Shown here: piece after piece, positions 1-57,584 of the stretch
Layout of the letters: each line of letters starts with the position of its first letter
Numbering within the stretch: position 1 is the stretch's first letter
From: Beroe forskalii
Lineage: Eukaryota > Ctenophora > Nuda > Beroida > Beroidae
NCBI GenBank assembly: GCA_011033025.1
Contig: WFMF01000201.1
Location: 124,001-188,000 of the forward strand
Length of the DNA: 64,000 bases
Reading direction: 5' to 3'
Made by a program: the position numbers and the translations under genes
Notes under the pieces: generated by a model
The model's database searches: none
What the model saw: only the letters and a program-made list of their open reading frames with translations
Told to the model about the DNA's origin: nothing

Positions 1-3000
1 AGCTTATTAGTGATAGTAGCAATTGGTCAACTCATTGGCTGAGATTTAAGGCGAGAAAATCCTGGTGTTTTCTATGGAGTGAATGATCAGTTGTTGTATC
101 TTACTCATTGACAGTAGGTCTAAGGAATCATCTAAAGATTCATACGAATCTGAATAAGAAACAAAAAAATAATATGTAATTTTCAAAAATATAATTTCAC
201 AAGTTACAAAAGCTGAATAAATAAAATTTAAATTAAATTTAGAGGGCTCTCACGACCAACATGTGAAATACAGTTAGGATAAGATATTATCTGAGTTCAA
301 TATTCATAGATTGTTGCACCAATATATTTGAATATTCCTTTGTTTAAATTGTAAATTCAAATTAAGGCATTCTGGTTCAAAATTTCTTATCCAGTAGACA
401 GACACAAAAGACAAACAATATTCGATCAGTACAAACTCTTTTCAAAGCAAACAGCACCAGATCCGAACATTAACTGACACTTGTGCCAGGGGTTAAAATT
501 AAGCGTGTCTATGTCTGCGAACTATTTTCCTGAACCTATGAATACAAATAGGCCGTTCTGATGACGTCATTATCAGAACTTAAAAAGTAAAATGATGACG
601 CCGGAGTGGCTAATTTTTTGAGCGTGTGGTATCATAGTTAAACTTTTCAGCACCTATCTCATTAAACCCTTGATAAGAAATGGCTCTTGCAACCCTCGGT
701 TAATTGTTTAAAATTACCTTAATATAATGTGACTGGTAGTTGACCGGAGGTATTACTGCACTTCAGTGCCAGTACCAAGAACTGCGCGTGTTTGACAAGT
801 GTTCATTTCGGAGGAGTTCAGTAACAGGGAAAACTAGTAAACAGTTGGTAATGGCGTAATTATCAGGGGATTTTAAATGGCAAATTAACGAATTCAAGCC
901 ACCTATTTGAGGTGCAAGACATACAGTCTGGATAGAATTATTTAACAATTTAACAAGTCATTTTCGGGAATAATAATTAGACTTTTTATTAGTCAAACGA
1001 AGAATTTGTGAATTTATGTGAAGCCCGAGTAACAGGTGCTAAAATTCGCAGTAGGGATTCTTTTCCCAAGTTGGGGCCCTCATTAATAAACAAGGAGCCT
1101 CATGCTTTAGTCACTAAACACAGGCCTCGGTACTCATAACTTTATAACACGAAAACGTCAATGAAGGACCACTAGGAGGTGTCAGAGTTTCCACGAATTA
1201 TGGCACTATGACTGGCATGGATTATTTTCTCCGAAGGCCATTTTATGAAGAAAGTCGCATTAATATTAATGATGTGCTAGAGCCAACTTATCAAATCTTT
1301 TGAGCCAAATTGTCCATCAATATTATAGGCATAATCATAAACCAGGCAGCAAATAGCATAGACTCAGAGACTATCTGACTATGGTAGACAAGAAAACCGA
1401 CATGGCAGCGGAGATACTGATAAAGTCCACTGGATGAGTCAGTAATAAAACAGAGGGTGTAGTTACCAAGCTACAAAGGTTCATGACATTTGGTAAGCGT
1501 ATCAAAATGCATACCGCTTGATGCCACCAATTTACCAGTTTAAGTCATGATCTTAACATCAATCATCAAGAAATTGTATGCGACAAGGAGAAATATGCGC
1601 CACACAATCGAAAGTAAATTCTTGGAGGGTACATTAATTGCAGATACCCAATCCTGCCTCATCCTGGAGCATCAGGAGTTCCTTTTCAGTGGCAGACAGC
1701 GTTACCAAATAAGGGCATCCATATTACGTCACTTCTTACCCAAATATGGTAAGTTTCATACTACAGTCCGCCGAATCATCAATCAACCAATGAATATCGT
1801 AGTATCGTACCGTATGGTTTGAATGGTTTGAATGGTTTGAATATCTTATCATTACTTGTCTTGTAACTGGTATGGCAGAAGAGCTGTGGATTGTAAATTT
1901 GTAATTTCACTCCCTTATTCTATTCTGTATCAGGAAAAGAAGGTCATGAAAGTGCTTCTGAAACAATGCGCAGGAAAAATGAACTGGTAAATTCATATTT
2001 TTCAGCAGTTTAGTTCAAATTGTTCAGTGCCAGGGAAAGGAAAGCATGAATTTCGGTACTATTCAAAAAGTTTTGTACCGAAAACTAATGACTTACAAAA
2101 ACCTTCTGGCCTAGCTATTATATGCATGCATATTTAAATGGATTCACTGCACAATTATCAAATTTTTCGATGGCCCAGTATTTATTTCTCTTTGCCGCGT
2201 GAAGTCTTTTAACCGACCGCTAAAAATCGGCCTTTTTGAACCCTCCTTTCGCATCTTAATTCATAATGGGACATGTTCCATGTCCACTTGGAACGAAGAA
2301 ACAAATTTGTTGACTTTGGACGTTTGTGTCATGAAACGCTGCTTATTTCAGTTATTTTCCCGTTTTAATCATGCCGCAATACCTTGAAATTGAACAAACA
2401 CTCTTCATTTAAACCCTGGAAGAGGAAATAGAAGATCGATGGTAGGTTCAGTATTATATTCAGGGCACTAGCGTTTAATTCAAAACAACAAAAAACTTTC
2501 AGTTTGTGGCAGCAACGTTTTGCCGAACAGATGATAATATATCAACGGACATATAATATTTGACATGTTGCCTGCAGTCTTAAAGATATTGGACTCCGGG
2601 TGATCCATTACAACTTCAATCGCACAGCAACGCTTTATATATCCAGAAAAACAATTATAATATCTAGCTATCTGCATAAAATCCTAAAAAACCATTGTAA
2701 ACCTTCATATGCTCGATACTTCTCCGGTCTGGAACGTCACTGTGAACGTCATATTGCCAGAACACGCTCAGTCGGGTGTCTCAAGAAAAAGGTAAAATAG
2801 TCAAATGAAAAGTGTTGGGAAGTGACGCAATTTTCAGGGTTAAGAATGATGGATTGGTGATTTTGGATTCGGCGGAATTTATCCTGTCCGGCATATAATG
2901 AGAAATGCCAGGTTTTGTTGTGACAGGGACGGACAATCCGTAAAACGTATGGTGACTGTCAGTTCAAGCCTGCCAGTCCCCAAAACTCGAGCACTTGACA

Positions 3001-3794: not shown

Positions 3795-4789
3795 CGATAA
3801 TTTTAAAAGTTGGTCTCAAAGTGGAGCACCTATCATTTGCGCGCAACTCCCAGTACGTGACTTCTAGTTTTGCAAAGGTCGATAAAAACTGAAAAAAAAG
3901 CAAACTTTGCAAACTGAGCTGTACCTGATTATGGAGTCTATAACATAGACAGCAGGAAATGGAAACACGTTTACGCAACTCTCAAATCTCAATCGTAAAC
4001 AACGGAATTTGATAGAAATATACTACAAAGATGCTTCCCGAGGCATAATATACGTGTGATTTATGAAGGTTTTGTTGCCTTTTGAATAATTCTCTTCTCC
4101 AGTGTAATGCTCGAGACTTAGAGTTCTTTTTTCGTAAGGTTTCATCATTTCCATAGAGCTGAGATCGAAGCAACTCATTGGTCGTTTACAAAACAAAGAT
4201 CCGATACTAAATTTTGATGATGATAAATGCCGTAAATTTTCTGCAAAACATATTGTTATTCTCGTAAAAAAAGGATATTAACAGCAAATATATTCTCGGA
4301 AAATAATTGAAACAATCATTCACGAAAGAAATCTGAGGAGCCATTCTGTAAGATAAGACCATGTCACGTGCCAAACACTTCACTTACGGATAAACTACCA
4401 GATCGCGACTTTACTGTCAACAACAAAAAATGTAACAGGAAGGATCGTGAAAATTAGCCAGAAACACAGCGCATGAAATCTACGCTGAGAATTTTTTGTA
4501 ACTTTTGAAAAATTTTTCCAACGAAAGAATTTTCCCACGAGTATAACGAGTTTATAGTTTATAGTTGTTTTGGTAGTTTTTAGTTCCACGAGACGAAGCA
4601 GAGTTGATTAGAAAGTAAGAATCAAGGTAATGCACTAGGCTGATTTCTAGTTTAGGATTTCAAATATATATTCCCGCTTTCCGTCGCGAAATTTCTCGGC
4701 AATGGCGGCTCCGAACTGTGATAATTGGTTTATTTGGACCAATTGCCGCCAAAAGCTCATTAGAGGGCTGATGCCAGCGATTGACCACT

Positions 4790-4823
4790 GTAAACCATGA
4801 TAATGATGTCACTTTAAACGGCC
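4790..4823 (+). repeat. CRE-core dispersed repeat, degenerate copy
   Basis: Reads TAAACCATGATAATGATGTC followed by ACTTTAAACGGCC. The core has one change (TGATGTCA), but both flanks fit the family consensus. Confidence 0.6.
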
Positions 4824-7153
4824 TAGGACTACGACATGACCTACATGGCAAGGTAGAGATTCCACGATGATTTTCTATGCGTAACAGGTTAAAAGTTTTC
4901 TTACAGGAAATTATTATATTATTAGATAGTAAGCCGTTTTAGAAGTCAAACGACCATCAATGAGCTGTCGAAACATCGTACGTTTTGTCCGGATTTGGTC
5001 AAAATGATGCTTGTAACTTTCAGCCAAAATGTTAGACCTAAACGTAATGTAAACGCGTTTATTAAGTGTTGAGAATTTTGGTACTAAGAGCTTTAAAAAC
5101 GGAAGGAATATGGACAGAAATTGATTATAATGTATGACGATTATTAAAGCGTGCGATTTTTCCGCACTTTGGGGTAATACCGAAATTAGGATGCCTGAGG
5201 GAGGAAGGAGAGAAAGTTCAAAATCAGTCAGTGAAAATTTTATAACTTATACAGTTCCAGCACAAAACATTAGTAAATTGATAAATTCTATTGGTTTTTA
5301 ATCGGATACGTTTGATCCTAAAAGTTGTTGATTCAAAAAAGTTGTAAGAGTGGAAATCAAAGTTCAATCATGCCCAAGTTCTGTTCGAAAATGCATGCAT
5401 CCGGTTCCGGCTTCAATGATATTCAGTAATATTATTCATGAAAGCATCCAGTTTGTCAACAGCAAAACTTATTTTTGCACTACTGTATTGTGAAAATTTC
5501 CTTTTAAAATTTCTTGTGAAAATAAACTAATAAATGCACTTTTAAATTTAACGTTTGATCTGGACGGCGAGGGTAGGCAAAGTTGTTTATTCAAAAGATC
5601 ACATAACTTCATGACTCCGGCTATCAGTAGGTCAAATTATTGAAATCTCACGCCGTGATTGGGTTAACTAATTCTCCTTCGTGCTTACAAATTGTAAGAG
5701 ATCCATCTTTTTGCCTAATTATTAATTAATTTGCCTCAGTCGATGATGTATAGCCATTATTAGGACTCACAACCGGACGAATAACCGCAAAAATTAGAAA
5801 TTGTTGCGAAAAATTTGAAGGTTATTCCGAAAAATTGCTGCGAAAAATGAGATTTAGCAAAAATTAGCAATAATTTGTCGACGAAACTTGAACTTTGCCG
5901 AGCATATATTCTGCCTGTTCGTGACTGTTTATAAATGTCAAAGAGCGACGATCTGATGCAGGTATCAGCTGCAATGTGGTTCTAATTCATTATCACAAGT
6001 GCTATATGCGTGTTGTCAGGATATGTATCTAGTCTGCATCATGTGTCATAACATATGCGAGACTAACTGGGGTGTAGGAATGAGATGAGTCAATCATGAA
6101 TCATTGGAGTGAGTGACGAGTGTACGGGATGGCTGACCGCTGATGTCTGTGAAATTGTGAATATTGATCCTCTGAAAAGGTCACAGACGGCTGGAGGAAC
6201 TGAGAGAGAAGATCCTTCCAACTTAACAGATAGAGCACGAAGGAGATATTGTTCCATCGAGTGCAATTCATTGAGCCAAAACATGGTTTGGAACATCCAT
6301 TCATGCTTTGGAATGTCTCAATTAGCCCATTTATGCGAAAACTACTTATCAGTTGACTTTACTTATTATTATCAAAAAGAACTCCAAAATTCTTGCTTTT
6401 TGGACTCTTGGATAATGGATATAATTGCTTTTGAATGGAACCAAAGGAACTAACCATGCTAAAACATCGACAATTTCAGAATGAGTCTTTCCAAAGAACA
6501 AACCTTGTTGGTTCATGGGTATACGTGACTTTTTTCTTTAACCGTATACCTGACTTTCAACATCGCTTGAATGTTGAAAGATAGATCAAAATATATATTT
6601 CATGATGACTGTCCTACAATTTGAATCAGAGATGAAGAATCATTTAGTTTAATTTGTTTAATTGAGATGACCTAGAAATGTTGTTTGCAGTGCCGCTCTA
6701 GTTGAAGGAGAAAAACTCCATAAAGATGATAATATATAAATTTCATCATGATCGCGTTTTAGAGAATGGCACAGATTTATATTTTCAGAAACTGTTAAAT
6801 CCGAAAAAACTGAAAAAGGACCGAATATTACAAAGACTCACCGTATCAAAGCTTCTTCCAAGCAGAGCAAACCAGCAGATATATCCTCAAATATGATATG
6901 TGTCCAGTCCAATCTAAAAAGTTTGGAGCAAAGTTCTGAACCCTCTTCGCTATATACTGTGCAGCCGAATGGAAGAGTATTTGGAATAGGACTGTGAGAC
7001 TGTGCCAAATAGAGGGGTTTGAGAGACAAGGGTAAATATAAATATCCTGCAACTCATGCACTTTATATATATCCACCAAGGACCCGGGATATATTGAATT
7101 TTAGGGGTTTATCATGAAAATGAGTACGCGACGCCAAGTCACTAACGCCCAAC

Positions 7154-7180
7154 GTTAAACTTTGATAATGACGTCATTAC
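7154..7180 (+). repeat. CRE-core dispersed repeat, copy
   Basis: TTAAACTTTGATAATG leads into a perfect TGACGTCA at 7169-7176. Confidence 0.6.
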
Positions 7181-8750
7181 AGCATCCAGCGAACAAGTCT
7201 CATTAGTAGGCAGTGACAGGCGTAAAACGGAGATCCGCACGAAAAATGAAACGTTTTTCCACCGATTATGCATCCGTCAAATACTCGGATCCATTAGAAA
7301 ACTAATGCAGAACGCCAAGTAGATGGACGGATCTGCGGCGGAAAAGCACTTAAACTGGAAGACGAATGGCTCGCAAAGCACTGATTTCAGGAACTTTTTA
7401 AGGTGTTCTCGTCGACATTTTACCTGTTTTTCTTCCTCGATCAATGAATGTTATATAAATTTTCCGACGTCAGTTTGGCAGGACGAAACGTCAAAATGTC
7501 ATGATGTGTGGTATAGTCAAAACATAATCTTGCTGTCCGACTCCATCTTTTTCACTACTTCTATTTCTAAGTACCAACTTGGAAAACTCAGCTCAGATAT
7601 TGCAGTCTCCTTAACAGTAACTTGCCCAATTAACAGCGATGCTAAGGAAGATATAGTGACACCTGACTGATTTCGGAGACATGATTTGAACCACTCTTGA
7701 TTCAATATTACGTCTTAAAGGAGACTGGAAAACACTTCCAAAGCTCACAACTCAAATAAGTGGTTTAACGCCCATCATGGCACGATGATGACGTCAGTCG
7801 TCACGTTCCACTGCATATTATTTCCTTTGCAGAGTGTGTGTGTGGAAATATATTCGGCCAATATCTTCGATCTTGGGTCCAAACCTTCCACTTATATGAG
7901 GACAGACAAATAAATCACTAGTTACTGATTGAATGACATATAAAAACCTACCTTAGATGCAATCATGACAGATGCAACAGATCCAATAACAGCGGATCAT
8001 CCACCTCCATTGGTTCCAATTCACAATATCGAGAAGTAAAGCCAAGGATCACATATATATATTATGATTCAAGGGAAACACACAGCAAACATATACTCAT
8101 ATATATCCAGATGGTACATAATATATATATATCAGACCTTCATTAAGATTACATGATCGTCGGAACGTGAAACGTGAACTTTGAAAACCATGAACGTAAC
8201 GAGAGAGGATGATGCAGCTTGCTCTAAAGGTTATTATAATTCCTTTCCAGCTGTGTCATTGCAGTGACGAAACTATAAAGGGGAGGAGCTGGAGTGAGCC
8301 GTTTGACTGGCACTGACGTGTTTTGTGCATGGACATGAGTACATGGGGAGAGGAGCTGTGTTTTTGGTGATTATGGTTTATGGTCTATGAAGAAAAGTTA
8401 ATGGTTTAGTGGACCACTTGTTTGGATTTATTTGATGTCTCAAAATCGGCTTTGAAGTTTCAAACGTCTACGTTTTTGCGGCCTTCGTCAGCCTCTTTGA
8501 ACTTGGCGAACAAAGGATACATGATAAAAAAGAAAAAAGTGTTTTATGGCAAAGACGGTAACAACTAGCTCCAGAATCCGCTCCATTTATAAGCCAACAA
8601 ATCTTGCAACGTAACGAAACTTTGCAATTATCGAAGTTTTATAATTTCGAGTTTTAATTACAAGTGTAAATTACAAATTTGTCTACTTGCAGACATGGTG
8701 ATTGAAAGTTCGTGATCAGATTTTGGACAGCCAAACATCACCAGCTGACA

Positions 8751-8795
8751 ATTTTAAACCTTGATAATGATGTCATTGAAAACGGCCGATTTTTC
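8751..8795 (+). repeat. CRE-core dispersed repeat, degenerate copy
   Basis: ATTTTAAACCTTGATAATGA leads into TGTCATTGAAAACGGCCGAT. This is one of the clearest copies, with both the AAACC and the AACGGCC flank, although the core is TGATGTCA. Confidence 0.6.
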
Positions 8796-10930: not shown

Positions 10931-12777
10931 TAGGATCCTGCACCGGGGTGTCTGTCTGGATCTCTGGTAGAGGTGTCCCTCTTTAGTATTAGCAATGCAA
11001 ACCATTCAACACTGATACCAGTTCGCCAGAAATACATCAAGTTGGAAATAACATTCCAGCTCACCTCGGTCAACTGTGTCCAATAAGTTGTTCTTTGTGA
11101 GAGTGTGCCCCTTCGGCCCCTTCGAGGCCGAGATCGTGGGAAAATGTTTTGTTTTCCAAGTATATTTGTAAGACAAATACAAACACTAAAACAAGATTCA
11201 GTATAAACACATCAGTTCTAGCCCTGAGTATATACCATGTTTACCATTTCAGTGATTCTAAAAACAAGGAATTGTACACATAGACTTAGAGTTCGTGTGT
11301 CATTTTCCTTTGTTTGCATATGGAATCCTGGAATTATACATGCATTTCCATCGTAATGTCACCCTGGTATATGTAAGCGAGTTTAGCACTGTGCAATTCC
11401 AATGGTCATAGTCCCTGATTCTCTAATTCCACAGAACGGGGACTTGAAGTTATTGCATCAAGTGGGGCCCTCATGAATATCTCCAAACTTGATTCCATCG
11501 ATTTTCAATCATATCCACCACATTAACATTGCTGGTAAGTTTTACACATAGACTCTTGAAAAACTAAAAACTGAATGCTGGAATCCAATGATCAACAGAA
11601 TCAGATCATTACTGCAGTTCTGTCAAAATGGCAACGAAGTGCCATGAAAGTACCGACCAGATACTAAGGCTGATATATAGTCTATAAGTGTCAAAGTTGA
11701 ACTATACAGTATATTGTAACAACAGGAATATAACCATCTGAATTGCGATATACACAAGGTCTCCGTTTAGATAGTGTTAATAGGAATCTGACAATTGATA
11801 CCTTAAAGCAACTTATCCGATATTATTTGGTGACAACTAGTCGACGCTGAACGAGATAGAAACATCGACGTAAACAGGTTGATTTTCGTCATCAGATCTC
11901 CATTACAAAGCATGGATATGACGTCTCTCTGAACTGTAGTAGGGTTGAAGGACAGTTGATACTAAGTTGAAATATACCTGCTTGTTACAAGGCGATAATT
12001 GCCGTGTTCTCCAAAAGTGCACGTGTCACACATGTACACAGGCCAGTCTCTTTTAGTCTTCGGATATAATCATCGATCAGATAGCTGGATCCAATCTTAT
12101 GTCAATAATTTTGACAAAAATCAGGGCGTTAGTGGGTCAGTCTTAGTTTAACACTTCAATTTGGCATACTTGCGACTCAGATTCAGAATATGTCTCTTTA
12201 CGCACTTGTGACAGTTATATAAACCTGTCAAAAACGTTCCCCTTGAAGTGCTGTGAATTCCTGTTGAAGTTCTTAGTTCATGCCCACCTACAGCAATTCA
12301 CACTCTCATCAGATCCCTATCAAGTGCTAAATATGCTGACTTGTCAAAGGGAGGATATTATATACTTTACTGCCTATCACAGTGCAAAGTGTTACAAGGA
12401 AAAAACATGGCTTCATAGGCTCATTAGTGGTCACGCAGGAACAGTAGGCGCCTGACACACTGACAGTAACAGAATATATAAACATATGTTTCAGAGTGTC
12501 TATTTGCTCAGGTTTAGCCGCCTATTTCCAGCAGTCGGCATCTCCAGTGGACCTGGAACACTTGCATGGGTTGTGGCATGGGATGATTGACATGGATATT
12601 CCGAGCAAGAAGAAGAAGGGTTTCAGTGCGATCTTATATGGGAATCGGTGATGAGACATGCCATTCATTTGGCAACCTATTTTAAAGGCTGTTTGAAAAG
12701 ACTGCAAAAGAATGCAATTTGCCTATATGGATGCTTATGAAGCAGTATTGCACTGAATTTGAGTCTTATTCGATAAC

Positions 12778-12940: not shown

Positions 12941-14572
12941 ATGTGACCTATCAATGAAGAAAAAGTCTAATGAAAACTCACAACTCACCGCTTGGATAGC
13001 GCAGAGAAGCTCCAATGAACTCTTGTGTTCAGATTCCATTTGGAATAAGATTGTCTGATTATAGGGAGAAGGGTTCGTCTAAAAATGCGAGTTTGAACTC
13101 GTGTTAGGATCAGAGGCACCTTTCTGTTAAGAAGGGGATTTTAGCTTTATATGAAGGGGTCTTTGATCGGCTGAAATGTGGTGCTCTGATTTCTGTTGGT
13201 TCTTGATCCTTCCACCGATGTCTGAAGTTTTGTTTTTGGAGCACCAGCAGTGATGGAAAGTCTTCTAGGTCATCCTTATCATCATCGTTTTATCCGGTAG
13301 TCCTGGTTGCATCGCTGTGATTCTGCCTTTAGGGAGATCAATGTTCAACAAAAATGTGAACAAAAACCACATACATAAATTGAAAATAATTAACAATATT
13401 ATGTTTTCCATGGTTTCAAGATTCGCCACGTAGCACCATATCCAAATTCAATTAATATATCATGCTGTGAGGCTATCGAGTTTGAACTGAAATTTCAAGT
13501 CTATGGATGGCAGACGGCTGTTATATAGGTCTCTGAACATGTAAATCACATTCGTGTATTTTCCGAGAAACACTTTGAATTTGAGGTAGAACCAGTTCTC
13601 TTGGTAGCGAAATAAAGACTAAATTCTAACGAAAAGATCTATTTTCCGAAAGTAGTTATATATTGTACTGTAGCAATTAGATGATCGTCCAAGGAATATT
13701 TTATGTTTATGTAGGTACCTACAGTCGATTGAAATGCAGAGTAAAAGAACATATGGGAATGGTTACATAATGCATGATGTTCTGCTACCAATACAGAACC
13801 AATACGGGAAACAATTTCTTTATTTGGGAAGTGGGGATAAAATGAACACGAAACCGAAGCATTTATTTAAGCGTAGCACGAAAAAAGAATGAAACTGCAA
13901 AAGCTTCGTAGCACAGACAAGATCAAAGCGAACTCGAAGACTTCTTTAAACATCAGAGTAGCACAGAAAAATCAGCGACATATCTTCACTGCTCTATAGA
14001 AACCGGAAACATCAGCGACAACCCAAACAGAGCAGGGCTATATGTAATGGGAATAGCACTGAAAAATCAGCATAGAAACATTCCCAGCTGGCACGGGCAA
14101 GATCAAAATTCAACAATTGTGTACGTCCTTATTAGACAGTAGCACTGAAATTACAGTCGACATACGTGATCAATTACACGTCAGAGACAGGTGCGATCCT
14201 AAAAATTCTACCCGTCAATAAGTAGCTCATGGCCCGTACCAACTCAATCTCAATTTGCACCTAGCAAATATATTGCTCGACAATACGTGATAATATGTTC
14301 CAGGAATTGTTACAAATTTGAAAGCAATCAAAATGACCATTAGGAATATCAATCAAGCAAGTCCGTTTGGCTCGTAATGTTCTCATCGCACATACAGATA
14401 TACAGAGGAGAATAATGGCAAATAAAAGCCCATATATGTCACTCCTGTAAATCTACAAGTGACAGGAATAATATTAGGGAGGCTAAGCCAGGCCCGTGTT
14501 AATACTGTAACTATCAGAGAGAGGTCGTGGACAAGTGATATATAGGCAGGATGACGGCATCAACTCAACACG

Positions 14573-14605
14573 TTATTCCATGATAATGACGTCACTTTAC
14601 AAGTT
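14573..14605 (+). repeat. CRE-core dispersed repeat, copy
   Basis: TTCCATGATAATGACGTCAC with a perfect TGACGTCA at 14587-14594. CACGTGCAG follows about 25 bases later. Confidence 0.6.
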
Positions 14606-14999
14606 CTATTAATTGCACGTGCAGAGTTTTGCCAATAAAGTTCTGCCTTGGGTCGGTGAATACGACTGAAAGCAAGATGACAAGGGCAAGCTTACTGAAC
14701 TGTAACACGTGTTTATAATCAAGAGTAACATAAGTTTTTGTTCTTAAAGCCGGTTTCGAGGTTATCAGTTAGGCCTGTCAGTAATAATGGTCATTGGCCG
14801 TTATAATGCAAAATACTAGCGTTTGATATAGTTATCATTGCTATGGTTTTAATTATCCAATTTATGGTGTCGCACCGCCCGATTTTGCTTACAATGCCCT
14901 TGTCAAGATTTAACGTTATACAGGTTGTTTATATAACTTCTGCCGGATGCATGATGCAACGACCCTGATTTCTGACGAAACCGGAAAATATCGATTCTA

Positions 15000-15067: not shown

Positions 15068-16839
15068 CAGTCATATGAGGCAATATCAGAAGAGGCATTC
15101 AAATACGAAGCAAAAGCAAGAGAACTTCAGACCAGGTTCTACAGAGTCACACCTTCTGAGAAATGTGAAATGATGTAACAATATAAAATTTGCCAAATTC
15201 TCGTGTGCTTACTATGTTCAGGGCAATTTATAAATTATATATCTCCATAACACATTTTATTATTTGAGCTGCACAGTGTCTTTTAGTAGTTTACATCGAA
15301 TTGCCAAAGTATATTTCAGCCTTTTTTGGACCTGCTCATGACTTCACAATAGCTCTGATTTCAAGGTGAAAAGTGCTTGGTAGTTAGATATCGGCCGCAT
15401 GACTGCATATTATAAGCTGTAGGACAAAGGGAGATATCAACAAATTTTCAGAATTATTTTGATTTGCTGTATCTTGTTGGTGATACTTACACCTTGAAAC
15501 CAACAGCTATACGAAAATTTCAGATATGAAAAATAATCATATTGGCTTGAGTCGAGTTTTCTTTTTTCAGAGCGCAGAAGCACCATGCTCGAAATTGTCT
15601 GAACCAAGGAGAACGAACAACCTACAAAATGCTCAACAGTCAGAAAGCGAAATCTTCAAAGTCTTTAAGTGAAAACATTTAGAGATTCTCTTTCTTAGTT
15701 TCTTGACTCGAATTTTTCTTTTAGGGGTTTTGTGTCTGTATGGACAGTAATTATGTTATTTTCACGTAGTTTAAAACAACGCGAAAAGTAATTTGACTGA
15801 CAAAAAAGTTCACCCATTCAAAATATATAGAAGCAAAATAATCTTGAAACTTAATAAGGAAAACAATGTTGATTGAGCCAGAGCGTGCGTTGGGTCTTAC
15901 CATCAGGGATAAACAGAGAAAAATGCAGATTATGGACTTTATTAACATTCACATACTTTCCCAATATGGTAATTTTTATGGCATCTGCATTTGTAAAACA
16001 TCTATGCAGGTGAATTTGTAGTAAATCGATGTGATGTCACTGACTGATAGGACGTAAACAGACGCCCCTATACCGTGTTTCGAATAATTTCTGCGAGAGA
16101 TGCCGTTAAGATGGACTCAATCGAAATATAATGACGAGAAACGTCAAATTTCCGCATATCATTCATGGTAGTGTCATTGAACTGTGCTGGAAATGGAAAA
16201 ATAGAAATTTCTGTAGAACTAGAATCAAATTAAACAATTTGACGTTTGATCTTTGTTTAGTTCCGCGAAATCTCTCCGAATCTCTGAAGGCGGATGAAAG
16301 TGGACTCTCATTTATTTTTGATTTATCTAATGATCAATCCATGAGAAAACTTCCTTCATGCCAAGTGTCGACATCAGGATTATCCCCAGAAGATACTATA
16401 TCGTCTATATAGACTGATACAGTCACGCGCGGAAGATAGGCGTCGTGACAACATAAATTGGTCATTAAAAACCAGAAAATGACGATGCCCTCGGCCAGCC
16501 TACCAAAGAACGTACGATCAAGAAGCGGATTGATAAGTCTCTGTCGTCCAGAGAGGACAAGCCCGTCCGGAATGATATTGTTGCACATTCTTTATCCAGA
16601 ATTCATGTTCCACACTTCTATACGTCTTTAGTTCGTTAATATGGGAAGACTATAGTTCGTCAGGAAGACTAACAATGTTTCCTCATCGAAGCCTTGATAA
16701 TGTGTTGCCAATTGGCAGTCGACACGTACTAGTGGGAAACGTTCGCAAATAATATGCGACTCAATGGGGACTTGTTCAATCTCCAAAGTAAAGGCAGTAT
16801 TTGATAATCCCAGCTAGGTATCTCACAGTTTGTACTAAC

Positions 16840-16955: not shown

Positions 16956-19942
16956 ATGATAGTGGTGAAGTGATGCCAAAACCACCATCTGGCAACCGAT
17001 CTTGGGAGAAATTCACTGAATAATACCCGTTCTTGCTTTCCCATCTACCATCCACACTCGCTCATACCTGACCTGTTCCCAATAATGAATCATGAAACTT
17101 CGGGGCTTAGCAGCACCGTCAACCCATCTAGAGTCACTGGACATTCTAACATTACCCGTTCTTAGTTTCTGTGAAGCAGAAAGTTTTTATGTAGCGCGAC
17201 AGTCCGGATCTCTCATATGTCCATATTCCAACCACCCCTCATTTTACATGCAACCAATGGCTTCGGTTAGATGTAACCGAAACCTGAGCCCTGAATCTCT
17301 ACTTTTCTACTGTTGCGACCAAGGGAGTCTCCATGACTACCACCGGCCGGGAGGAATGAGACCCAGCCGAGTGAAATATAGGATATTAAAATGAATATTA
17401 GCTGAAATTTCAATAATGAACAAGAAAAAATAGAACAATTTTCAATTTAATACCCACCGCCATTTTGGTATAGCGTCGTCTTTGTTTGCTTTATCTCCAA
17501 CTTCAACACCGATCTATTGCTCCCGAGAGCAGTTTTACGAGTCCAACTATTATATACAAAAGGTGAAGCTGCTTAAGCTATACAACTTGACTGACCTTAA
17601 CGATCAAATAAATATAAAGTTCGATAAATTATATTCTGATCAGAAAGCCAGGATATAAATACCACTTCAAGCTATAGAACTGTCAATCATCCAAAGCGGA
17701 TTTCACGAATCGGATCGTTGACAAACTTCAATGAGTACAAGATAAACTAAGGTGTTTTTACTTCATGTACCAGTACAACCAATTCAGGAGAAAATAAAAA
17801 ATTCCCCTTTTCAAAGTTCGTGGAAAAAAAGTGAAACATGTCTGTGAAACCTTGAAAGAGTGAGAGCGAATGTGTTACACTTGAGTCACATGTCTATTTT
17901 GTATTTGGATCGGTCCAATGGTCCCCCTCTAAGCTGACCATGTTAATAATGACTAATGACGGTAAAGATATATAATAACTACTCAGCTGTTCTATAGAAC
18001 TACTCAGTTGAGACGCGTAGGACGAAGTTGCGAAAATTGAAATGCCCATAGATTCATAGAATAGGGATAAAATGAGCTTTTGATAAACTATTCGGTATTT
18101 CAATTGAAGTCATCAGGGTGCACGATATTATCAAGTTTCATGAAAATTGGACAATGGCAAGTGCGTAGGACGGGCGTTTAAAAATCGTTTAAAATCCGAT
18201 GGGTCTTTATAGCTTGACGGGAACGAATGGTACGTGACAGTGTGAACTGTTACGTTCTGTAATATTGTAACAGGTGCTGCCATGCAATTCATCGTGCTGA
18301 TGATGATTCTACAACTGTTTTATGAATAGGTTCTCTACGATTAATAGACGATATTACATTTCCAATTCATTTCGTAAAATCGTGATGATGAATCCACCCT
18401 AAATGGTCTATTAGTCTGGCGTGGCGTTGTCAACTTTCAAGCTTCAAGACAAAAACAGTTTACAAATTTGTTTGGATTCGTAAGTAACAATCTGTTAGAT
18501 TGTCTGGAAAACTTCGGTACCTAGACTATTTTTGTAACAATGTAACAGGTCGGTCATTTAGAAAACACATTACTGTCAGACTGATATGAATAACTCTCCA
18601 TAGGAGTTGAACTTTGATATATCGAAATAGGCTAGAAGATTGATGGGAAGCCCAAAATATTTAACGGCACCAAATTTTAAATGCATGGGAGAAATTTTAG
18701 CACACAATGCAACTGAATCTATCTAATGGATAATCAAAAGATTTGTTTATTATTGTTCGAGTGCAATGTCTTTCGTCCGTTGGGGACAAATCCTACGATG
18801 CCATGCATCTACCGAGTCCATAAGTCTCTAATTAGCGCACAAAGATGTCTGAAACATGCTCACAAGAGACCATATAACCCTATTCCCCCACCAAGCTGTG
18901 AACTCATGATTTTCAGATAACTCAGTAGCCATGAGGACCCTTAAGTTTGAAACAGGTGTATTATATGCTCATGAAATTATTATATTCTAATCTGTGTCCG
19001 ATTAATTTGAGTTCGTGAGGGGGCTGTGTCATTATCTGAGAACTAAATGGTGAACCAGATGACATACAATCGCCTGTTTTATATTATTCAAGGGAAGGAA
19101 TATATAATATATACTGGTTCTAGAATTTAAATCTAACCTCTGAATTTAAAAATATATATTATAACCGAGTCCGTGTGTGTTTAAAACAACATTCGTCTTT
19201 TGTTGAATATATATTTTGCAACACCAGGCTAATGCAGGGTTGGAAAATTAATGGCAGGGTTTAACAATTTCCGACCATCTAGGAAAGGGAGAATGGTGTT
19301 AAATTTAACAATTTCCGATGGAAGGAGCATCTAAATTCTAAAAGTGGTGTTTAAAGTGGTCACGGACTCAGACTAATGTCTAGTATGTCTACCGATGTCT
19401 GAAAAGAAAACCAAGGACAAAATAGTAAAAACTACGGTAGTATATTAATTGAAAAAACGGGAGGAATATATAATTGCAATTTCAGGAACGCTTACAGTTA
19501 CAGGCAAAACCTCGAGAATTGTGAATTTTGGCAGGTGGCATAAAAATAGACCGCAGGTAATCCATGATGATGCATACATATTAAAAGTCTCTTGATTTCA
19601 TTCGATTTATTTGAAATTACTTACTTTTACCTAACTCTAAGTCACCCATAAATTTACTGAACTAACTAAATAATAAATTTCCTACAAAATTAATGTTGAC
19701 AAGAGGCGTTGGCAACATTTGATAAATGTGTCTGATTTCTCTTCGGCCAGTGGCCGGTGATTGTAAAATATCAAAGAAGGCAAAGGTGTAACACAAAATT
19801 TGAGTACAAATTTGTCAAATCTTAATACCAAATCCCAATATTTTGGTGAGAAAAAATTAAGTTCAGTTGCATTGAAGTGCATCAACTTGACTCATTGTTG
19901 AGCTGATACTAATGCATAAATAAAGATAATCTGAATGAATAA

Positions 19943-35911: not shown

Positions 35912-35945
35912 ACCATTTTAAGTCATGCTAATGATGTCACTGCTG
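35912..35945 (+). repeat. CRE-core dispersed repeat, degenerate copy
   Basis: CCATTTTAAGTCATGCTAAT then GATGTCACTGC. The left flank fits, but the core is TGATGTCA. Confidence 0.45.
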
Positions 35946-36108
35946 CTCGTCCATAATTTATGTCTAGCAAGTACTGAGCAAGGGAATTTTACATAGGGTA
36001 GCTGAGTTATATAATATGTATGGGCAATAATAATATAGTGGAGCAAAACCCTAGTCCTACACCAATGTTGGGATAAACTGGTTCTGGTTAAATGGCAGGT
36101 TTTTTGCT

Positions 36109-36132
36109 GTGACGTCATTATCATCATCTAAG
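36109..36132 (-). repeat. CRE-core dispersed repeat, copy
   Basis: GTGACGTCATTATCATCATC with a perfect core at 36110-36117. Confidence 0.6.
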
Positions 36133-37174: not shown

Positions 37175-37205
37175 AGTTACATCATTATCATGGGTTAGGA
37201 TGGTA
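37175..37205 (-). repeat. CRE-core dispersed repeat, degenerate copy
   Basis: GTTACATCATTATCATGGGT then TAGGATGGTAA. The core has decayed (TTACATCA), but the right flank fits the family. Confidence 0.45.
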
Positions 37206-38157
37206 AATATATTGACGAAGTCAACTATAACCTCTGAAAATTCTCTCGAGCATTAGAGTCCGCCATAAACTATCAAAAGTAAAGGAAAAGACACGTGAAT
37301 CTGGTGTGGTCCCGTACGTGAAAAATACAGAAAAATACTAATTAGAGGCAAATATAGGGCTCTTGTTCATTGGTAACAATTTTATATGCGTTTCTCACAT
37401 GTTTCTATTCAAGAATTTACCCTTTTGTTACGCGAAGTTACACTAAATGAACCGAGTTATATATAATTTCATTTCTATTTAGCCAGCAAACGTGCAAAGT
37501 TAATTATGATGAACTATAGATTTTTAATTCATAATAATTTCCCCTTATTATCATGAAAATATATCGCAACTTACAGATGTTATGAAAGAAATGAACATTT
37601 ATAATCAAGGAAATGCTGCAAAGTGATAACCACCTGTGATTCATGATGTTACGTTTCAAATGATTGCCTAATAGGTTCAATTACAGTGGAATATGTACCC
37701 TTAGTAAGTCAAATGCGAAGCTGTTTTATCTCCATTTTAACAGTTAGGCAGCTATTTTCACACAATTTAACCCTACTTTCACCCCCACTGGAGGTGTATT
37801 AGGGTCATTTAATCGGTGGCATTTGCTGACATATACAACTGTGGGAAGTCAAGGAAAATTGCTGAAATATTATCAGCGATTGAATCCATGGGAACTGGGA
37901 ATTATAATAACAAAACTCTCTTGGAAAGCAAAAACTGCTTCTTGCGGCTCTTATTTTCATGGCTTATATATACAACCTGAGAGGAGAATGTTAAAACATT
38001 TTCACCAATATATAAGACATGTTTTAACTGTCGTAAACCTTTAAAATAGTAGCCCTGGAGATTTCATTTGTAGAAGTGAATATATTCTTAGAAGGTATTG
38101 TTAATAGAGTCAGCATAATATATTAGCTTCCCCTTAGGATCCCTAAATCGTCATGAT

Positions 38158-39043: not shown

Positions 39044-39923
39044 ATTAAATGACATGTTAATTATATGTAACAATACGTGTAAAATTTCAGATTTTTATTG
39101 TGATACTGATTCAATTTTCCACATCATTTCTCAGAGGATAGTCAAATTTGGCAAGCCTTCTTCACATTTACTCGGTCAATATCTTTTTTGGCGAAAAAAA
39201 TCATGTTTTTTGTGTTTGAAATAGTCGAAATGAAAATCAATTTCCAGGACATTAGATTTGGTCGATATGAAAACTTTAGTGACTGGGAATGTGGCACGGT
39301 GGGCCTGGTCAACGTATGAGATTAAAATTTTTGACAACCGAAAGCTTCATGAATTAAGAAATTCGTGATTTTGAAGATTTGTGTGAAAGGGGGACGGACG
39401 GAGGGACGGAGGGACATTTTCGCGACTGATATTATAAAGGAGCAATCCGGGCACTTTCCAGAAATTACAGTAGTTGTATTGCAAACCTCGACCTGATATA
39501 CACATATCCTATTTCTCACCTTCCCAAACCACGATCTCTGCCAACCCTCTCATTTGCCTTTTTGTATACACAAAAATGCCAATGGGGAGGGAAAAAATCC
39601 ACACCGATATAGTGTGTAGTAACAATATTATTTAACGATCCGAGCAAATGTTACTAACAGGATTTCAAACTCGGCGAAGGGACCGTGAGTTAAATAATAA
39701 ATAACATAAAACCGACTAACATTTGTTTGTTTCGTGACCGCCCACAATGACCTTGAGAACATCAAAGAGCCACACTTACAATATTAAAGTTAGTGGTTGT
39801 AGCGTTCATATATTAGTGTGCCCATGTAGTGTGCCCATGTAATATTAGTACCCAAGCTCATATATAATTCTTATATTGCTGATAACCAGAATTGAAAAGT
39901 ATTCGGTTTTATATCATTGATTC

Positions 39924-39970
39924 GCCATTATAATCCATGATAATGATGTCAACCCGCAACGGGCTATTTT
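39924..39970 (+). repeat. CRE-core dispersed repeat, degenerate copy
   Basis: CCATTATAATCCATGATAAT then GATGTCAACCCGCAACGGGC. It keeps the full left flank and an AACGGGC right flank. Confidence 0.6.
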
Positions 39971-41828
39971 CAAGTTTGTGTGAGATTCAAACTGAGCGAA
40001 CCAAAGCTCGCCAATCGTAGAGTGCTGAGTCAGAAGGACCACAGGAAAATGGAATACGACTAGCTAAGGGTATGCCGCTACAGACACGGAATAGACAAAA
40101 GGGCAGACAGAGGCAAACATGCAGACAAACAGACTCAGATTGATGCGTTTTCTTGCTTTTTGAAGAAGCATGCAAATACAGAAAAATCACATGAAAGTCG
40201 ACGAGAAAAAACACAGAGGTAGAGACAATAAAAAACGAAACAAACTGAAAAAGCAGACAAACAGACAAACCTAGACAAACTAATGACGCACTATAGTAGA
40301 ATATTATATTCAAACTATATATCACCTGAAACAATATATAATTTAACCAGTCTAAAGTTATATGTTTGATGATAAAGATGTAAAACATATATTTGTATAT
40401 ATCAAACAGGTGCTAATTTTTAGCTAATTTAGCTTATTCTTAGCTAATTTTTAGCAAGCACTTATGATAAACTGCAGGTGCAGATTAAATCTAACACTCT
40501 GTGCGGTCAAAATATATTTCAAATGGGAAGAATTGCAAATATTTGACGATTTATGTCTTACTTGACGACACGAATATATAATTTGGTGATTTTCACCAAT
40601 ATATGAAAATTTGACGGATTTATTTGACGTCACAAACCGAGTGATAGTTTTTGGCGTGAGCAGTGTGGTTATATATAATCATTATTGCGCAATGAACTAA
40701 TGAACCTTCAGACCAAGATGCATTTCTCTTGAGATTAAGGTTTCTGAGACATGCGTTTCACGTAATGACTTCCATAACAAGCAAAACATTATATCGGTGA
40801 ATTATAATCACGATCAATTCTTATATGTTGAGCAGTTTTATATAATCACGAAATTTATTGAGCTGAACTGAGGGTGTAAATTAAGTGGTGTTTTCTATAT
40901 CAATCACATTAATATTGCGAAATTATTGCATCTCATAAGATTAAGTTAATCTTCATAGATCAAGTTAATCTTTATGGAGGCTTGATCATGATTTTTGACG
41001 GGGAGATATAGAGACTCACGTATACCTTTTTTATTCAAGTAATATCAACTTTCCTGATAATATTTACCAATTAACAATTTACATACTACCGGACTTATTC
41101 TAGCAGAAATATATATCTTATTTCGCGGTAGTATCAAACAGAAATATAACTAGAACGTTATGTGAATATGAAGTACATCAGCACTAGAAACGTGACAGCA
41201 AAGGAAAAGGAAATTGAAGTTTCTTGCCCTTCAAATCTATTGGAATAATATTATTAGCCAATTAATATTCTTGTAAACTGGAACAAATTCCGGTTTACTA
41301 TTCACACAATAGACTGCTGAAATGACGATATTGTCATAGCACAAAGTAGTGAGTTGGTTTTAGATAGTCGTCTATTTTTTGCACTCGGGTTTAAGCTATT
41401 ATAAACCTGTTTATTTGAGACATCAGCACTTATTTTACTAATATAGAAAAGTAATAGGAAATAGTAAAACTAGACAAAAATAGGGCAGAAAGTAAATTAT
41501 CAGAAAGTAGGAATATTTCTACATTTCAATTGTCAAGAAAATCTATTCAAGCACTTCAACAGGCAATCCGGTATTGGCCGTTGGGTTATCGAAACTTTTG
41601 ACTTGTTAAATTCTTAGGAAAAGCAGGATGGAAGGAAAATAAAAAGTTTTTGATTTTTGTACCTGAAATAATTTACTGCAAAAATATCATAAACAGCCTT
41701 CGTCTGATAAACGAAGCACATTATTATTTTCTCAAAGATAAAGAATTTTCAATATATACTCTCTGACCCTTGCCTCAACTGAATTCTTTGAATTGCTTTA
41801 CTGAGTAAAACCTTACCATTGGTAAGGC

Positions 41829-42910: not shown

Positions 42911-43160
42911 GAGTTAAAAAACAAAAAAGTCACCCACTGGACAATATAGTTTTTGTTCATCTACGGATCTTTTAACGAGATCCTTATCACCAACAGCTGC
43001 ACTAAATTTTGTTTTATCAGAAATTCATAGTAAATAAAAATATAGATATGATTCCTAAAATACCTTCTGTCAACGAGAAAAGTTGGGGGTTGGGGCTTCA
43101 CTGATTACCCACAGTCCTAAGACTTCTGGTACTTACCACAGCTGTCCAATTGGTGGAGTA

Positions 43161-43195
43161 GATGACGTCATTATCATAGCTCATAGTGGTACGTT
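43161..43195 (-). repeat. CRE-core dispersed repeat, copy
   Basis: GATGACGTCATTATCATAGC with a perfect core at 43163-43170, then TCATAGTGGTACG. Confidence 0.6.
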
Positions 43196-43314
43196 AATGA
43201 CGTTGAATCACTTACCTTCTCAGCAGGTAGGGTTGAGTTAACTAATACCTAAGTAGTACTTAAGTATCTCGCGCGCGTGCGCGAATATAATTGGCGATTA
43301 AATGTCATCAATTT

Positions 43315-43360
43315 GAACCATTCTCAAAACATGATGATGTCATTGCCAACCGCCTATTTT
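43315..43360 (+). repeat. CRE-core dispersed repeat, degenerate copy
   Basis: ACCATTCTCAAAACATGATG then ATGTCATTGCCAACCGCCTA. A CGCGCGCGTGCGCG tract lies about 50 bases upstream. Confidence 0.5.
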
Positions 43361-44970: not shown

Positions 44971-44975
44971 AATAT

Positions 44976-55448: not shown

Positions 55449-57584
55449 CTGCAGGAAAGACGGAAAATTAACTTTGATAAGAGTGAGACTTTAGAATATT
55501 CTGAAATTTGATCATAACAGTTAGTTCACTACAACAGACCAAATTCGGTGGGAAGGATCATGCATATTGCAGATCTCTATGTCCATTATGTTGATCGAGT
55601 GCCAAAACACCCCATCTCACCTCGTTCTGTTTGGAGTGCCAGTTCTCGAGCTCCTTGACCGCCTCAGCTCGCCATTCCTCAGTCTTGGCGGCTGCTTCAG
55701 TGTCCCTGGCAGCTATCTCCTCCGCCTGCTCTAACCTCCACAACCTGGGGGCGGACAGGAATGAGACGGAAGAAAGGCAGTAGATAGGCAGTAGACAGAA
55801 TGTAGTTTTCGGACATTGGGTATGTTTGATATGAGTCGCATCTGATAAACGTATTTTTTAACCTTTCTAGAAATTTTACTTCACACTTTTTGCGAAAAAT
55901 TAAATTCTAGGGATTTCTCTCCTTATCTGATGCTCTCTGGTTCTGCAGCCTCACTGAGCGCCTCATACACAGACCCTCCCCCCTTACCTGATGCTCTCTG
56001 GTTCGGCAGCCTCACTGAGCGCCTCATACACAGACCCCCCACTGGACCCTCCCTCGTCAGTAGGGGCAGGAGCAGCCAGCACCATCTCCGGTTCACTCAT
56101 CACAGGGGCAGCGATGAATTCAGGCTCAGACATGACGGGGGGAGCGGCGATAGGGCCGTCGTCTTCTGCCAGAAAATCTGAAGATTATATTTGTGTCATG
56201 ATAGATTAGATTATTCAGTGAAATTAATTGCAGGTTTAGCTTGCCTAATTTAGGCATTATAAGATCTACTCCAATCTGTGTCTTTATCGAAAGTATTGTA
56301 GTATCGTTATCGTTACTGAGTTGTTGTGTTAAAATCCAAATCATGTGAGACCTGAATAGCAATTATATTCCTCCTCTCTACTGACTACCCTCAATTTGGC
56401 ACCATCTGTTCGCGGTTCCGGTTATTAAACACAACTCACAGATAACAGGCTCTCAAGAGCCATCTCATTTTCGTGATTTGGAGTAGTGAATTGATGATGC
56501 CAGAACGCCTCTTATTGGCACAAGACCTATTGAAGGTACATATCATATGAGTTTGAGATATGTAAATGGATAGAAGCCAGCTGTTAAGTCTTATGACTCT
56601 CAGTATTTTCTCTCGCGGATGCAAAGTAGAGCAAAGCTTCACATTCTAAACTATGATAATGACGTCATTCTCAACTGCATTTATATTATTTGGGGACACA
56701 CAGCTAACACTCGTGAGACGTTCCAGTGAGCGAATCGACAAAGTTCAGACAATTATTATCATCACGTTGAGATATACAAATATAAATAATAAAATTTCAT
56801 GAAAAGCTTTTTACTGGATATACGAATATATTGATTTTCTAAGAATTAATGAAAAGATATGTCACATGAAAATATTTTGCCGAATGTCAATTTAGGCGGC
56901 ATCTTTGCTTTAATTCAACTGATGCCATTCACAATTAATATCTTTCTTTCACAGCTTGAGTTGTATCACATTATCACATTCGCAAGGCTACAACTAAGCC
57001 TCAGGTGCATTAATTTTTTAAATATATGGATTAAGCCAAAGTTGGGGCAAAATGGATCGTTGCCCCAAGACTAAGATTTGAAACCTGGAAAAAAAAACAG
57101 CTAAAGCTCTTGGGATCTACAGATCTACGTATATTAAATTTACAGCACCAAATACCAAGTCAAAATATCCAGCAGTTATGATTTAATAATGCTTAAATAA
57201 TAAAGCAAAAATAAAACAGCGAAAGCCGCTTTCCGGGCTTAATTGTTCCCGTGCTAAAAGACTGCTTACAGAATAAGGAAACTCTAATACTTTAATAAGA
57301 CTCAAAATCGTGAATAAATAACAAGCTTTCAGCCTAGAGTTTCAAAAATTTTCCAGCGAAAAAACAGATTGCATGCATAGCCTTAAGAGTGTTAACAGAC
57401 GGCACTCACCAAGTCCTACGTCTCCAGGAGCCACTTCAGCCGGCGGGGGAGGATCATCAGCGATCAGCTCGAAGTTATCGCCACCCAAAACATCGCCACC
57501 TAGCACATCGCCACCTAAAACATCGCCAATGGCGGCTTGTTCTCGAGAGAGGAAGTCGGCAGCCGGGTCTTCTTCAAAGTCCAT
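55245..57584 (-). CDS. CLT: clathrin light chain, complete, four exons
   Basis: Clathrin light chain binds the proximal leg of the heavy chain and regulates coat assembly at the plasma membrane and trans-Golgi. Exons at 57584-57410, 56177-55988, 55744-55621 and 55448-55245 join in matching phases to a 230-residue product, the usual size. It starts MDFEEDPAADFLSREQAAIG, the conserved acidic EED plus DPAAxFLxxE consensus element, followed by three GDVLG repeats. A Pro/Ala-rich linker comes next, then ESIRLWRLEQAEEIAARDTE and EWRAEAVKELENWHSKQNE, the heptad region that contacts the heavy chain. The C-terminus, FLKECQEQKPGAQWEKICKL, CDFNPKNN, MRSIFLQLKQNPLVRS, is the classic light-chain ending. 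Splice signals are consensus throughout. The vertebrate CLTA/CLTB split does not apply, so I use a general symbol. Confidence 0.95.
55621..55744 (-). CDS. CLT: clathrin light chain exon 3
   Basis: Acceptor CCCCCAG, donor AACGAG|GTGAGATG. Encodes the heavy-chain-binding helical region, LWRLEQAEE to WHSKQNE. Confidence 0.95.
55926..56046 (-). repeat. 61-bp tandem duplication of an exon end with its donor
   Basis: GGGTCTGTGTATGAGGCGCT..GAGAGCATCAGGTAAGG is repeated directly downstream on the minus strand. In the second copy the donor reads CAG|ATAAGG, so the GT is lost. Only the first copy keeps a working splice site. Confidence 0.9.
55988..56177 (-). CDS. CLT: clathrin light chain exon 2
   Basis: Acceptor TAATCTTCAG, donor ATCAG|GTAAGG. 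Encodes DFLAEDDGPIAAPPVMSEPE and then a Pro/Ala-rich stretch ending SEAAEPESIR. Its 3' end and donor are tandemly duplicated just downstream (see 55926-56046). Confidence 0.95.
56645..56680 (+). repeat. CRE-core dispersed repeat in clathrin intron 1
   Basis: TCTAAACTATGATAATGACG then TCATTCTCAACTGCAT, with a perfect core at 56660-56667. Confidence 0.6.
57410..57584 (-). CDS. CLT: clathrin light chain exon 1 (start codon)
   Basis: ATG at 57584 to donor ACTTG|GTGAGTG. A 15-bp in-frame tandem repeat (GGCGATGTTTTAGGT-like) gives the triple GDVLG. Confidence 0.95.

What the first reader, a model, noticed from the sequence alone, without database searches (positions are those of the whole stretch)
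551..56680. Dispersed repeat family with a CRE (TGACGTCA) core
I count 13 exact TGACGTCA sites (562, 7169, 7789, 14587, 28248, 30140, 34181, 36110, 40625, 43163, 56660, 58859, 58894). Even at equal base frequencies about one is expected in 64 kb. About ten of these, plus degenerate cores (for example 4801, 8765, 39943, 43332), sit in a longer unit: AAACC(A/T)TGATAATGACGTCA then TT..AACGGCC(T/G)ATTTT, in both orientations. TGATAATGACGTCATTATCA is a full 20-bp palindrome. This is either an uncatalogued palindromic MITE family or a distributed regulatory site for CREB/ATF-type factors.
Basis: partly seen in the sequence, partly recalled or inferred. Interest (0 to 1): 0.75.

Follow-up and report, generated by a model that had tools for sequence, protein, structure and literature searches.

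The report
Foldback repeat family with CRE core
An animal genome carries tens of thousands of short, hairpin-type mobile-DNA remnants that mostly keep the same 14-letter protein-binding-like sequence while the rest of each copy has decayed, which is unusual and testable but most likely a transposon family rather than a regulatory code.

Summary
Nine of the 13, and all four degenerate cores named, lie in a longer unit with 29 copies in the window, on both strands.

Genome-wide (216 Mb) the 14-mer TGATAATGACGTCA occurs 7,719 times exactly, against 3 for the reversed control. I estimate about 26,000 copies.

The best-preserved copies show what it is: a foldback element of roughly 100 bp with 18-bp inverted ends (13 of 15 exact pairs start 69 bp apart), unrelated flanks, and two outward CRE-like boxes 35 bp apart. 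Two window copies folded no longer fold back. Target-site duplication stayed unproven.

The surprise is the decay pattern: the core differs from consensus at 8-15% of sites, the ends at 50-59%. Ordinary MITEs should keep their ends best. Two other repeat types carry the core. I read it as a protein recognition site.

The regulatory reading is weak: 27 of 29 window copies lie before 43.4 kb, where no gene domain was found, and one duplicated region gives no sign of slower change in the core. Organism not identified.

The parts
549..618 (-). element copy; exact 14-mer core 562-575
   Evidence: nhmmer E 5e-11
837..908 (-). element copy, decayed core
   Evidence: E 3e-9
1504..1551 (+). element fragment
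   Evidence: E 6e-5
2810..2861 (-). element fragment
   Evidence: E 1e-4
4765..4825 (+). element copy, core TGATAATGATGTCA
   Evidence: E 2e-11
7122..7180 (+). element copy, exact core 7163-7176
   Evidence: E 1e-9
8724..8791 (+). element copy, core TGATAATGATGTCA
   Evidence: E 1.5e-11
11872..11925 (+). element fragment
   Evidence: E 7e-7
14538..14610 (+). best-scoring copy in the window, exact core 14581-14594
   Evidence: E 4e-15; no foldback left, z 0.04
16432..16484 (+). weak element fragment
   Evidence: E 0.0045
18339..18412 (+). element copy, decayed core
   Evidence: E 8e-6
19028..19080 (-). element fragment
   Evidence: E 2e-4
28240..28291 (-). element copy, TGACGTCA intact
   Evidence: E 1.6e-9
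30125..30196 (-). element copy, exact core 30140-30153
   Evidence: E 1.5e-12
30628..30676 (+). element fragment
   Evidence: E 1.6e-6
32394..32477 (-). element copy with an insertion
   Evidence: E 7e-8
33953..34020 (+). element copy, core TGATAATGACGACA
   Evidence: E 1.3e-9
34170..34237 (-). element copy, exact core 34181-34194
   Evidence: E 1.6e-11
34691..34739 (+). weak element fragment
   Evidence: E 0.0025
35907..35953 (+). element fragment, core TGCTAATGATGTCA
   Evidence: E 1.7e-6
36103..36162 (-). element copy, exact core 36110-36123
   Evidence: E 2.5e-7
36896..36954 (-). weak element fragment
   Evidence: E 0.007
37168..37224 (-). element copy, core TGATAATGATGTAA
   Evidence: E 2.6e-7
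39895..39966 (+). element copy, core TGATAATGATGTCA
   Evidence: E 3e-10
41314..41380 (-). element copy, decayed core
   Evidence: E 4e-6
43155..43217 (-). element copy, exact core 43163-43176
   Evidence: E 4e-13
43289..43358 (+). element copy with TGATGTCA
   Evidence: E 6e-8
56465..56516 (-). element fragment, about 1 kb from a clathrin light chain exon
   Evidence: E 3e-7; exon 55.25-55.49 kb
56638..56679 (+). element copy, exact core 56654-56667, 19 of 20 bases of the palindrome
   Evidence: E 8e-9

Best explanation
It is a non-autonomous, foldback (MITE-like) mobile DNA family of roughly 100 bp, present in about 26,000 copies in this animal genome. A fresh copy has long inverted ends (18 bp, CGCACGAGAAATAGGCGG ... 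CCGCCTATTTCTCGTGCG, with a looser extension of about 9 bp on each side). Inside them are two CRE-like boxes pointing outward (AACGTCATCA on the left, TGATAATGACGTCA on the right, 35 bp apart), around a variable centre. Shown: dispersal as a unit among unrelated flanks, the inverted-end anatomy of the best copies, loss of the foldback in the two window copies folded, and much stronger retention of the core than of the ends. Inferred: a transposase supplied from elsewhere moves it, and the TGATAATGACGTCA box is the recognition site of a protein (that transposase, or a host bZIP factor recruited by it) that several element families share, so every successful source copy keeps the core while ends and centre drift.
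For: 14-mer 7,719 exact against 3 for the reversed control. Up to one mismatch 17,705 against 92, giving about 0.92 per-site retention and about 26,000 copies by my arithmetic (independent, equal decay assumed). The 18-bp end occurs 1,887 times at up to 2 mismatches, control 0; among the 100 exact places listed are 15 -/+ pairs, 13 of them 69 bp apart, one 68, one 72 (recounted). Eight well-preserved copies were read with flanks; L032 and L033, on different contigs, differ at 3 of 87 positions and have unrelated flanks. Mean outer-flank identity between copies 0.26. Three well-preserved copies fold with z -7.6 to -8.6; two window copies have z 0.04 and 0.23. TA at the same offset outside the end in 12 of 16 arms, and TA peaks at -61, -58 and +46 over 144 copies (25 each, other offsets mostly 5-20). 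Core against ends: of 94 genome-wide places holding CATCAAYTCACCATTTTAA, 58 have TGACGTCA at the fixed distance and 1 has the 8-bp right end; copies found by that block alone keep TGATAA and TGACGTCA at 0.88 and 0.85, the ends at 0.50 and 0.41 (n=17, 1 in the reversed control). The same 14-mer lies in two other repeat types, one of them an inverted repeat carrying it in both arms.
Against: No clean target-site duplication: flank direct repeats are in modest excess (36 of 149 copies with 7 bp or more against 19.4 expected, three of the 36 from the L018 array) but at inconsistent offsets; outer flanks also show a mild excess (35 against 26.8); one copy with perfect ends (L033) has none of 5 bp or more. 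The TA could be part of the end rather than a target; TA also stands at offset 6 in 7 of 16 arms. No empty site was found for 7 copies. No autonomous partner was looked for. Ends are the least conserved part, the reverse of what transposase dependence usually gives. Three tandem arrays of a 35-36 bp unit show that parts of the unit also multiply locally. About a tenth of exact 14-mers (7 of 75 with non-core identity under 0.35) are not in a recognisable unit of this family or lie in arrays.
Confidence: 0.7

Rival explanations
1. The copies began as a mobile element, but the CRE box is kept in place by selection at many sites because a CREB/ATF-type bZIP protein uses it (regulation, chromatin organisation or silencing).
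For: Core retention of 0.85-0.94 per site while ends are near 0.4-0.5; the four centre positions next to the core vary freely; copies look nearly star-like, nearest-neighbour identity 0.588 against 0.540 for column-shuffled.
Against: In the one inverted duplication available (L014/L015, four element pairs) the core changed as much as the adjacent bases, 6 of 56 against 45 of 462. 27 of 29 window copies lie before 43.4 kb, away from the genes recognised. Only 144 of about 26,000 copies were compared, so many small subfamilies with a shared core would look star-like; about a quarter of the 144 do have close neighbours and the 75 exact-14-mer copies show real heterogeneity. Selection at thousands of sites is a heavy claim.
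Confidence: 0.2
2. Each unit is a small-RNA or other mini-promoter, in the manner of the C. elegans Ruby-motif piRNA loci, with flanking TATA boxes at fixed distance.
For: TATA boxes are enriched at -70..-61 and +50..+59 (21-25 per 10-bp bin against about 9 expected), symmetric around the unit; flanks are unrelated and units clustered.
Against: Other bins reach 17-22, so the TATA signal is weak; the two U6 upstream regions read carry no unit; the TATA excess can be a target preference or part of the decayed end; a near-identical 87-bp unit with perfect inverted ends on different contigs needs copying.
Confidence: 0.05
3. A SINE or other RNA-derived retroposon.
For: Direct flank repeats of 6-9 bp at variable offsets in several copies.
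Against: No Rfam family or tRNA in the window, no tail seen, inverted ends.
Confidence: 0.05

Closest known systems
MITEs (foldback, TIR-type non-autonomous DNA elements; recalled, TA-target Tc1/mariner or Stowaway type nearest)
   Same: About 100 bp, no coding room, inverted ends in the best copies, very high copy number, both orientations, TA next to the ends in 12 of 16 arms.
   Different: Ends decay fastest and an inner 14-mer is kept; target-site duplication not shown; no partner transposase known.
CRE / CREB-ATF binding site (TGACGTCA; recalled)
   Same: Exact palindromic octamer on the right and a CRE-like half (AACGTCAT) on the left, in outward orientation.
   Different: Fixed inside a repeat with a TGATAA extension; no promoter association seen in the window; binding untested.
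C. elegans Ruby-motif piRNA loci (recalled)
   Same: Very many dispersed, clustered copies of a constant box with unrelated flanks.
   Different: Inverted-end foldback anatomy; not present at the two U6 upstream regions read.
Ctenophore loop-anchor motif bound by CTEP1/CTEP2 (PMC12221973)
   Same: A genome-wide motif in an animal genome of roughly 200 Mb whose loop promoters often hold DNA transposons.
   Different: That motif is described as GC-rich; its letters are not in the passages read; the organism here is not identified.

Membership tests
MITE | short, non-coding, non-autonomous | tested here: met
   unit of about 76 bp in the profile and about 100 bp between TAs
MITE | terminal inverted repeats | tested here: met
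   exact 18-bp ends in 15 -/+ pairs among 100 listed places; foldback z -7.6 to -8.6 in 3 of 3 well-preserved copies folded; lost in the 2 window copies folded
MITE | dispersed high copy number with unrelated flanks | tested here: met
MITE | fixed-length target-site duplication | tested here: inconclusive
   TA in 12 of 16 arms, but variable longer repeats and none of 5 bp or more in L033
MITE | paralogous empty sites | tested here: inconclusive
   joined flanks of 7 copies: no empty site among 18 matches
MITE | autonomous partner with the same ends | not tested
   no transposase search was made; the one whole-genome protein-family request sent (COX1) did not complete
CREB/ATF regulatory site | TGACGTCA present above chance | tested here: met
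CREB/ATF regulatory site | enriched near genes or promoters | tested here: inconclusive
   no annotation; in the window 27 of 29 copies lie before 43.4 kb, where 11 ORFs tested gave no Pfam domain
CREB/ATF regulatory site | bound by a bZIP protein in vivo | not testable with these tools
   needs ChIP or binding assays
snRNA-type (PSE/Ruby) promoter | box present upstream of U6 genes | tested here: not met
   two of the seven above-cut-off U6 loci read (140 bases upstream each), neither carries it
SINE | tRNA/5S/7SL-derived head | tested here: not met
   window only: no Rfam match at gathering score, no tRNA

The most novel reading that the evidence does not exclude
A decayed foldback family has seeded about 26,000 sites whose 14-bp CRE-containing box is maintained in place by the host, as a genome-wide landing grid for a bZIP protein (silencing, chromatin organisation or small-RNA production), so that the inner box outlives the element's own ends.
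Probability: 0.13. Interest if true: 0.8.

Novelty: new variant of a known kind. Interest (0 to 1): 0.42.

Why it matters
In ordinary MITEs the ends are expected to be kept and the inside to drift. Here the inside box is kept some four to six times better than the ends, in a family of tens of thousands of copies, and two other repeat types carry the same box. Whether that reflects a shared recognition site or maintenance by the host is open, and cross-species or binding data would settle it.

Tried and rejected
Organism: not settled. The COX1 search of the genome did not complete; let-7 gave two hits at one place (both strands), 46 bits, below the family cut-off of 53.5, at most a hint of a bilaterian. 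Protein searches returned 1 and 11 proteins without organism names, one named solute carrier 35 F1/2. A ctenophore idea was followed through one paper and left open.

snRNA-type promoter: rejected on two U6 upstream regions. Hairpin kept by selection in old copies: no support, arms of one copy match each other no better than arms of different copies (z -1.4 to 2.2 over ten offsets). CpG hypermutation of the core: TGATAATGATGTCA is 410 genome-wide, 1.7 times the mean of about 238 per one-mismatch variant, so not strong (window CpG observed/expected 0.86). Correlation of block identities across copies detected by the full profile is biased by detection, so it was repeated on 75 exact-14-mer copies, where there is some real heterogeneity (sd 0.108 against 0.061 expected) and some subfamily structure. 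In one search the core offsets were wrong by about three bases; its identity table is not used., other ascertainments in the same 94 kb: centre plus right arm (n=10, 1 reversed) TGATAA 0.82, TGACGTCA 0.81, left arm 0.38; left arm, left CRE and centre (n=28, 2 reversed) 0.69, 0.60, right arm 0.38; left arm plus left CRE (n=26, 2 reversed) 0.60, 0.52, right arm 0.35; both arms only (n=2) 0.33, 0.19, uninformative and against the pattern. Empty sites (18 matches): own halves; both flanks of L033 again at C182:196037-196223, where the ends lie at 196087/196156; two more hits of its right flank on C182; and one 80% match at C1:340275-340406 that spans the join but is the copy's own left flank running into its own unit, because its right flank is itself a decayed copy (L011 4447-4506). 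The exact longer pattern is in no virus or prokaryote contig, but it is narrow: 8 of 34 loci held have it.

Print: the 14-mer is in no paper of the library; CREB with miniature inverted-repeat or MITE terms gave none; TGACGTCA with sponge/repeat (8 papers) and with transposable element/invertebrate (1 paper) gave nothing on this by their listings. PMC12221973: passages and section 9 read. Ruby-motif papers: listing only. MITE, CRE, PSE and Ruby features are recalled.
Full report
OBSERVATION. Nine of the 13 and all four degenerate cores named lie in copies of a longer unit; 7789, 40625, 58859 and 58894 do not. A profile grown from 75 exact-14-mer copies finds 29 copies in the window at E<1e-2, 15 on + and 14 on - (28); the reversed sequence gave no hit at E<1e-2. 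The full 20-bp palindrome is not present exactly in the window.

GENOME SCALE. The window lies in a 216-Mb genome of 1,134 contigs. TGATAATGACGTCA occurs 7,719 times exactly, 3 times read backwards, and 17,705 times with up to one mismatch against 92. If sites decay equally and independently that ratio gives about 0.92 retention per core site and about 26,000 copies (my arithmetic); 7 of 75 exact 14-mers read have little of the rest of the unit, so the figure is rough. Sites are clustered: of the 47 exact sites listed for contig C2, 26 lie in 86 kb (the listing is cut at 100 rows and incomplete for C1).

ANATOMY. The 76-bp profile reads CAAAAAATAGGCGGTTTA-ACGTCATCAATTCACCATTTTAAACCA-TGATAATGACGTCA-TTCTCAACCGCCTATTA. 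Two CRE-like boxes point outward, 35 bp apart. The 18-mer CCGCCTATTTCTCGTGCG occurs 1,887 times at up to two mismatches, reversed control 0; among the 100 exact places listed are 15 -/+ pairs, 13 of them 69 bp apart start to start, one 68, one 72. Three such copies were fetched and five more taken from DNA already held. L032 and L033, on different contigs, have identical 18-bp ends, differ at 3 of 87 positions and have unrelated flanks. Three of these copies were folded and fold back along nearly their whole length (z -7.6 to -8.6), while the two window copies folded do not (z 0.04 and 0.23). Outside the 18-mer a looser CGGSGTWTA follows; TA sits at the same offset in 12 of 16 arms and at two bases less in 7 of 16, and over 144 mostly old copies TA peaks at -61, -58 and +46 around the core start (25 of 144 each, other offsets mostly 5-20). 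TATA boxes are enriched just outside (21-25 per bin against about 9 expected, other bins up to 22).

DISPERSAL. Outer flanks of different copies are unrelated: mean identity 0.26, with a few neighbouring or duplicated pairs higher. Joined flanks of seven copies, searched through the genome, showed no empty site; both flanks of L033 recur at a paralogue on C182 that also holds the ends. Direct flank repeats of 7 bp or more are in excess (36 of 149 against 19.4) but at scattered offsets, and outer flanks show a mild excess too (35 against 26.8). I therefore call the family MITE-like and leave the target duplication open.

DECAY PATTERN. Copies found only by the block -27..-1 in 94 kb (window, L027, L028, L029) that I had not chosen for the 14-mer (17 copies; 1 in the reversed control) keep TGATAA at 0.88 and TGACGTCA at 0.85, but the ends at 0.50 and 0.41. 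Genome-wide, of 94 exact CATCAAYTCACCATTTTAA places, 58 carry TGACGTCA at the fixed distance and one carries SGCCTATT within a five-place range (three of the 61 places are not among the 94). Between the two blocks four positions vary (0.49-0.80) and TGATAA is kept (0.87-1.00). So the core is kept much better than the ends. Against maintenance in place: in the inverted duplication L014/L015 four element pairs differ at 6 of 56 core bases and 45 of 462 adjacent bases, two pairs with an unchanged core and two with a changed one. The core also occurs in a second repeat (L002, L011) and in both arms of a large inverted repeat in L019, which favours a shared recognition site.

CONTEXT. Domains found in the window are an unconventional myosin tail (48.4-48.6 kb) and clathrin light chain (55.3 kb); a weak transmembrane match at 50.0-50.7 kb is below its curated cut-off. 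An ORF at 62.1-63.5 kb has no domain itself but matches a protein with ubiquitin-hydrolase domains at 41%. Eleven ORFs tested before 43.4 kb gave no domain; many shorter ORFs were not tested, so 'gene-poor' is provisional. Twenty-seven of 29 copies lie there, two about 1 kb from the clathrin exon, none in L028 or L029. Three separate tandem arrays repeat a 35-36 bp unit with the core or a near variant, as expected from unequal exchange between the two boxes 35 bp apart (inference).

VERDICT. Shown: excess, shared unit, genome-wide abundance, inverted ends, dispersal, unequal decay. Inferred: transposase mobilisation and the core as a protein recognition site. Open: target duplication, partner element, organism, host use of the core.

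Noticed in passing
window 58849-58916: Two head-to-tail 35-bp units (ATATCTCAGATGACGTCATATCACAGGTGTCCATG) hold two of the 13 octamers; not the dispersed element, but the same 35-bp spacing of CREs.
   Followed up: partly
L018 5172-5422: Seven tandem 36-bp units with the 14-mer, about 570 bp upstream of an SLC35F1/2-like ORF; related arrays in L024 1198-1294 and L011 2514-2654.
   Followed up: partly
L019 2781-3060: Large inverted repeat (78% between arms) with the 14-mer in both arms, next to telomere-like GGGTTAGGG/GGGTCAGG runs.
   Followed up: partly
L002 1406-1604 and L011 4763-4964: A second repeat (87% alike, about 200 bp) with ATATGGGGATTTTT motifs that also carries the exact 14-mer.
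   Followed up: partly
window 20055-20140 and 51876-52043: 16-bp-period TGACACC tandem array, present in inverted form 32 kb apart (78% complementary).
   Followed up: no
window 24306-25390: 143-bp tandem duplication flanking an 11/21-bp GGGAGTCC array, repeated 584 bp on.
   Followed up: no
window 51434-51530: 43-bp inverted repeat, 98% complementary, 11 bp between the arms.
   Followed up: no
L014 4901-8800 against L015 1-4600: Inverted segmental duplication on contig C1 (pieces of 74-90% identity) holding four element pairs, useful for rates in place.
   Followed up: yes
G000:C240:191488-191570: Weak let-7-like hairpin, 46 bits on both strands, below the family cut-off.
   Followed up: no
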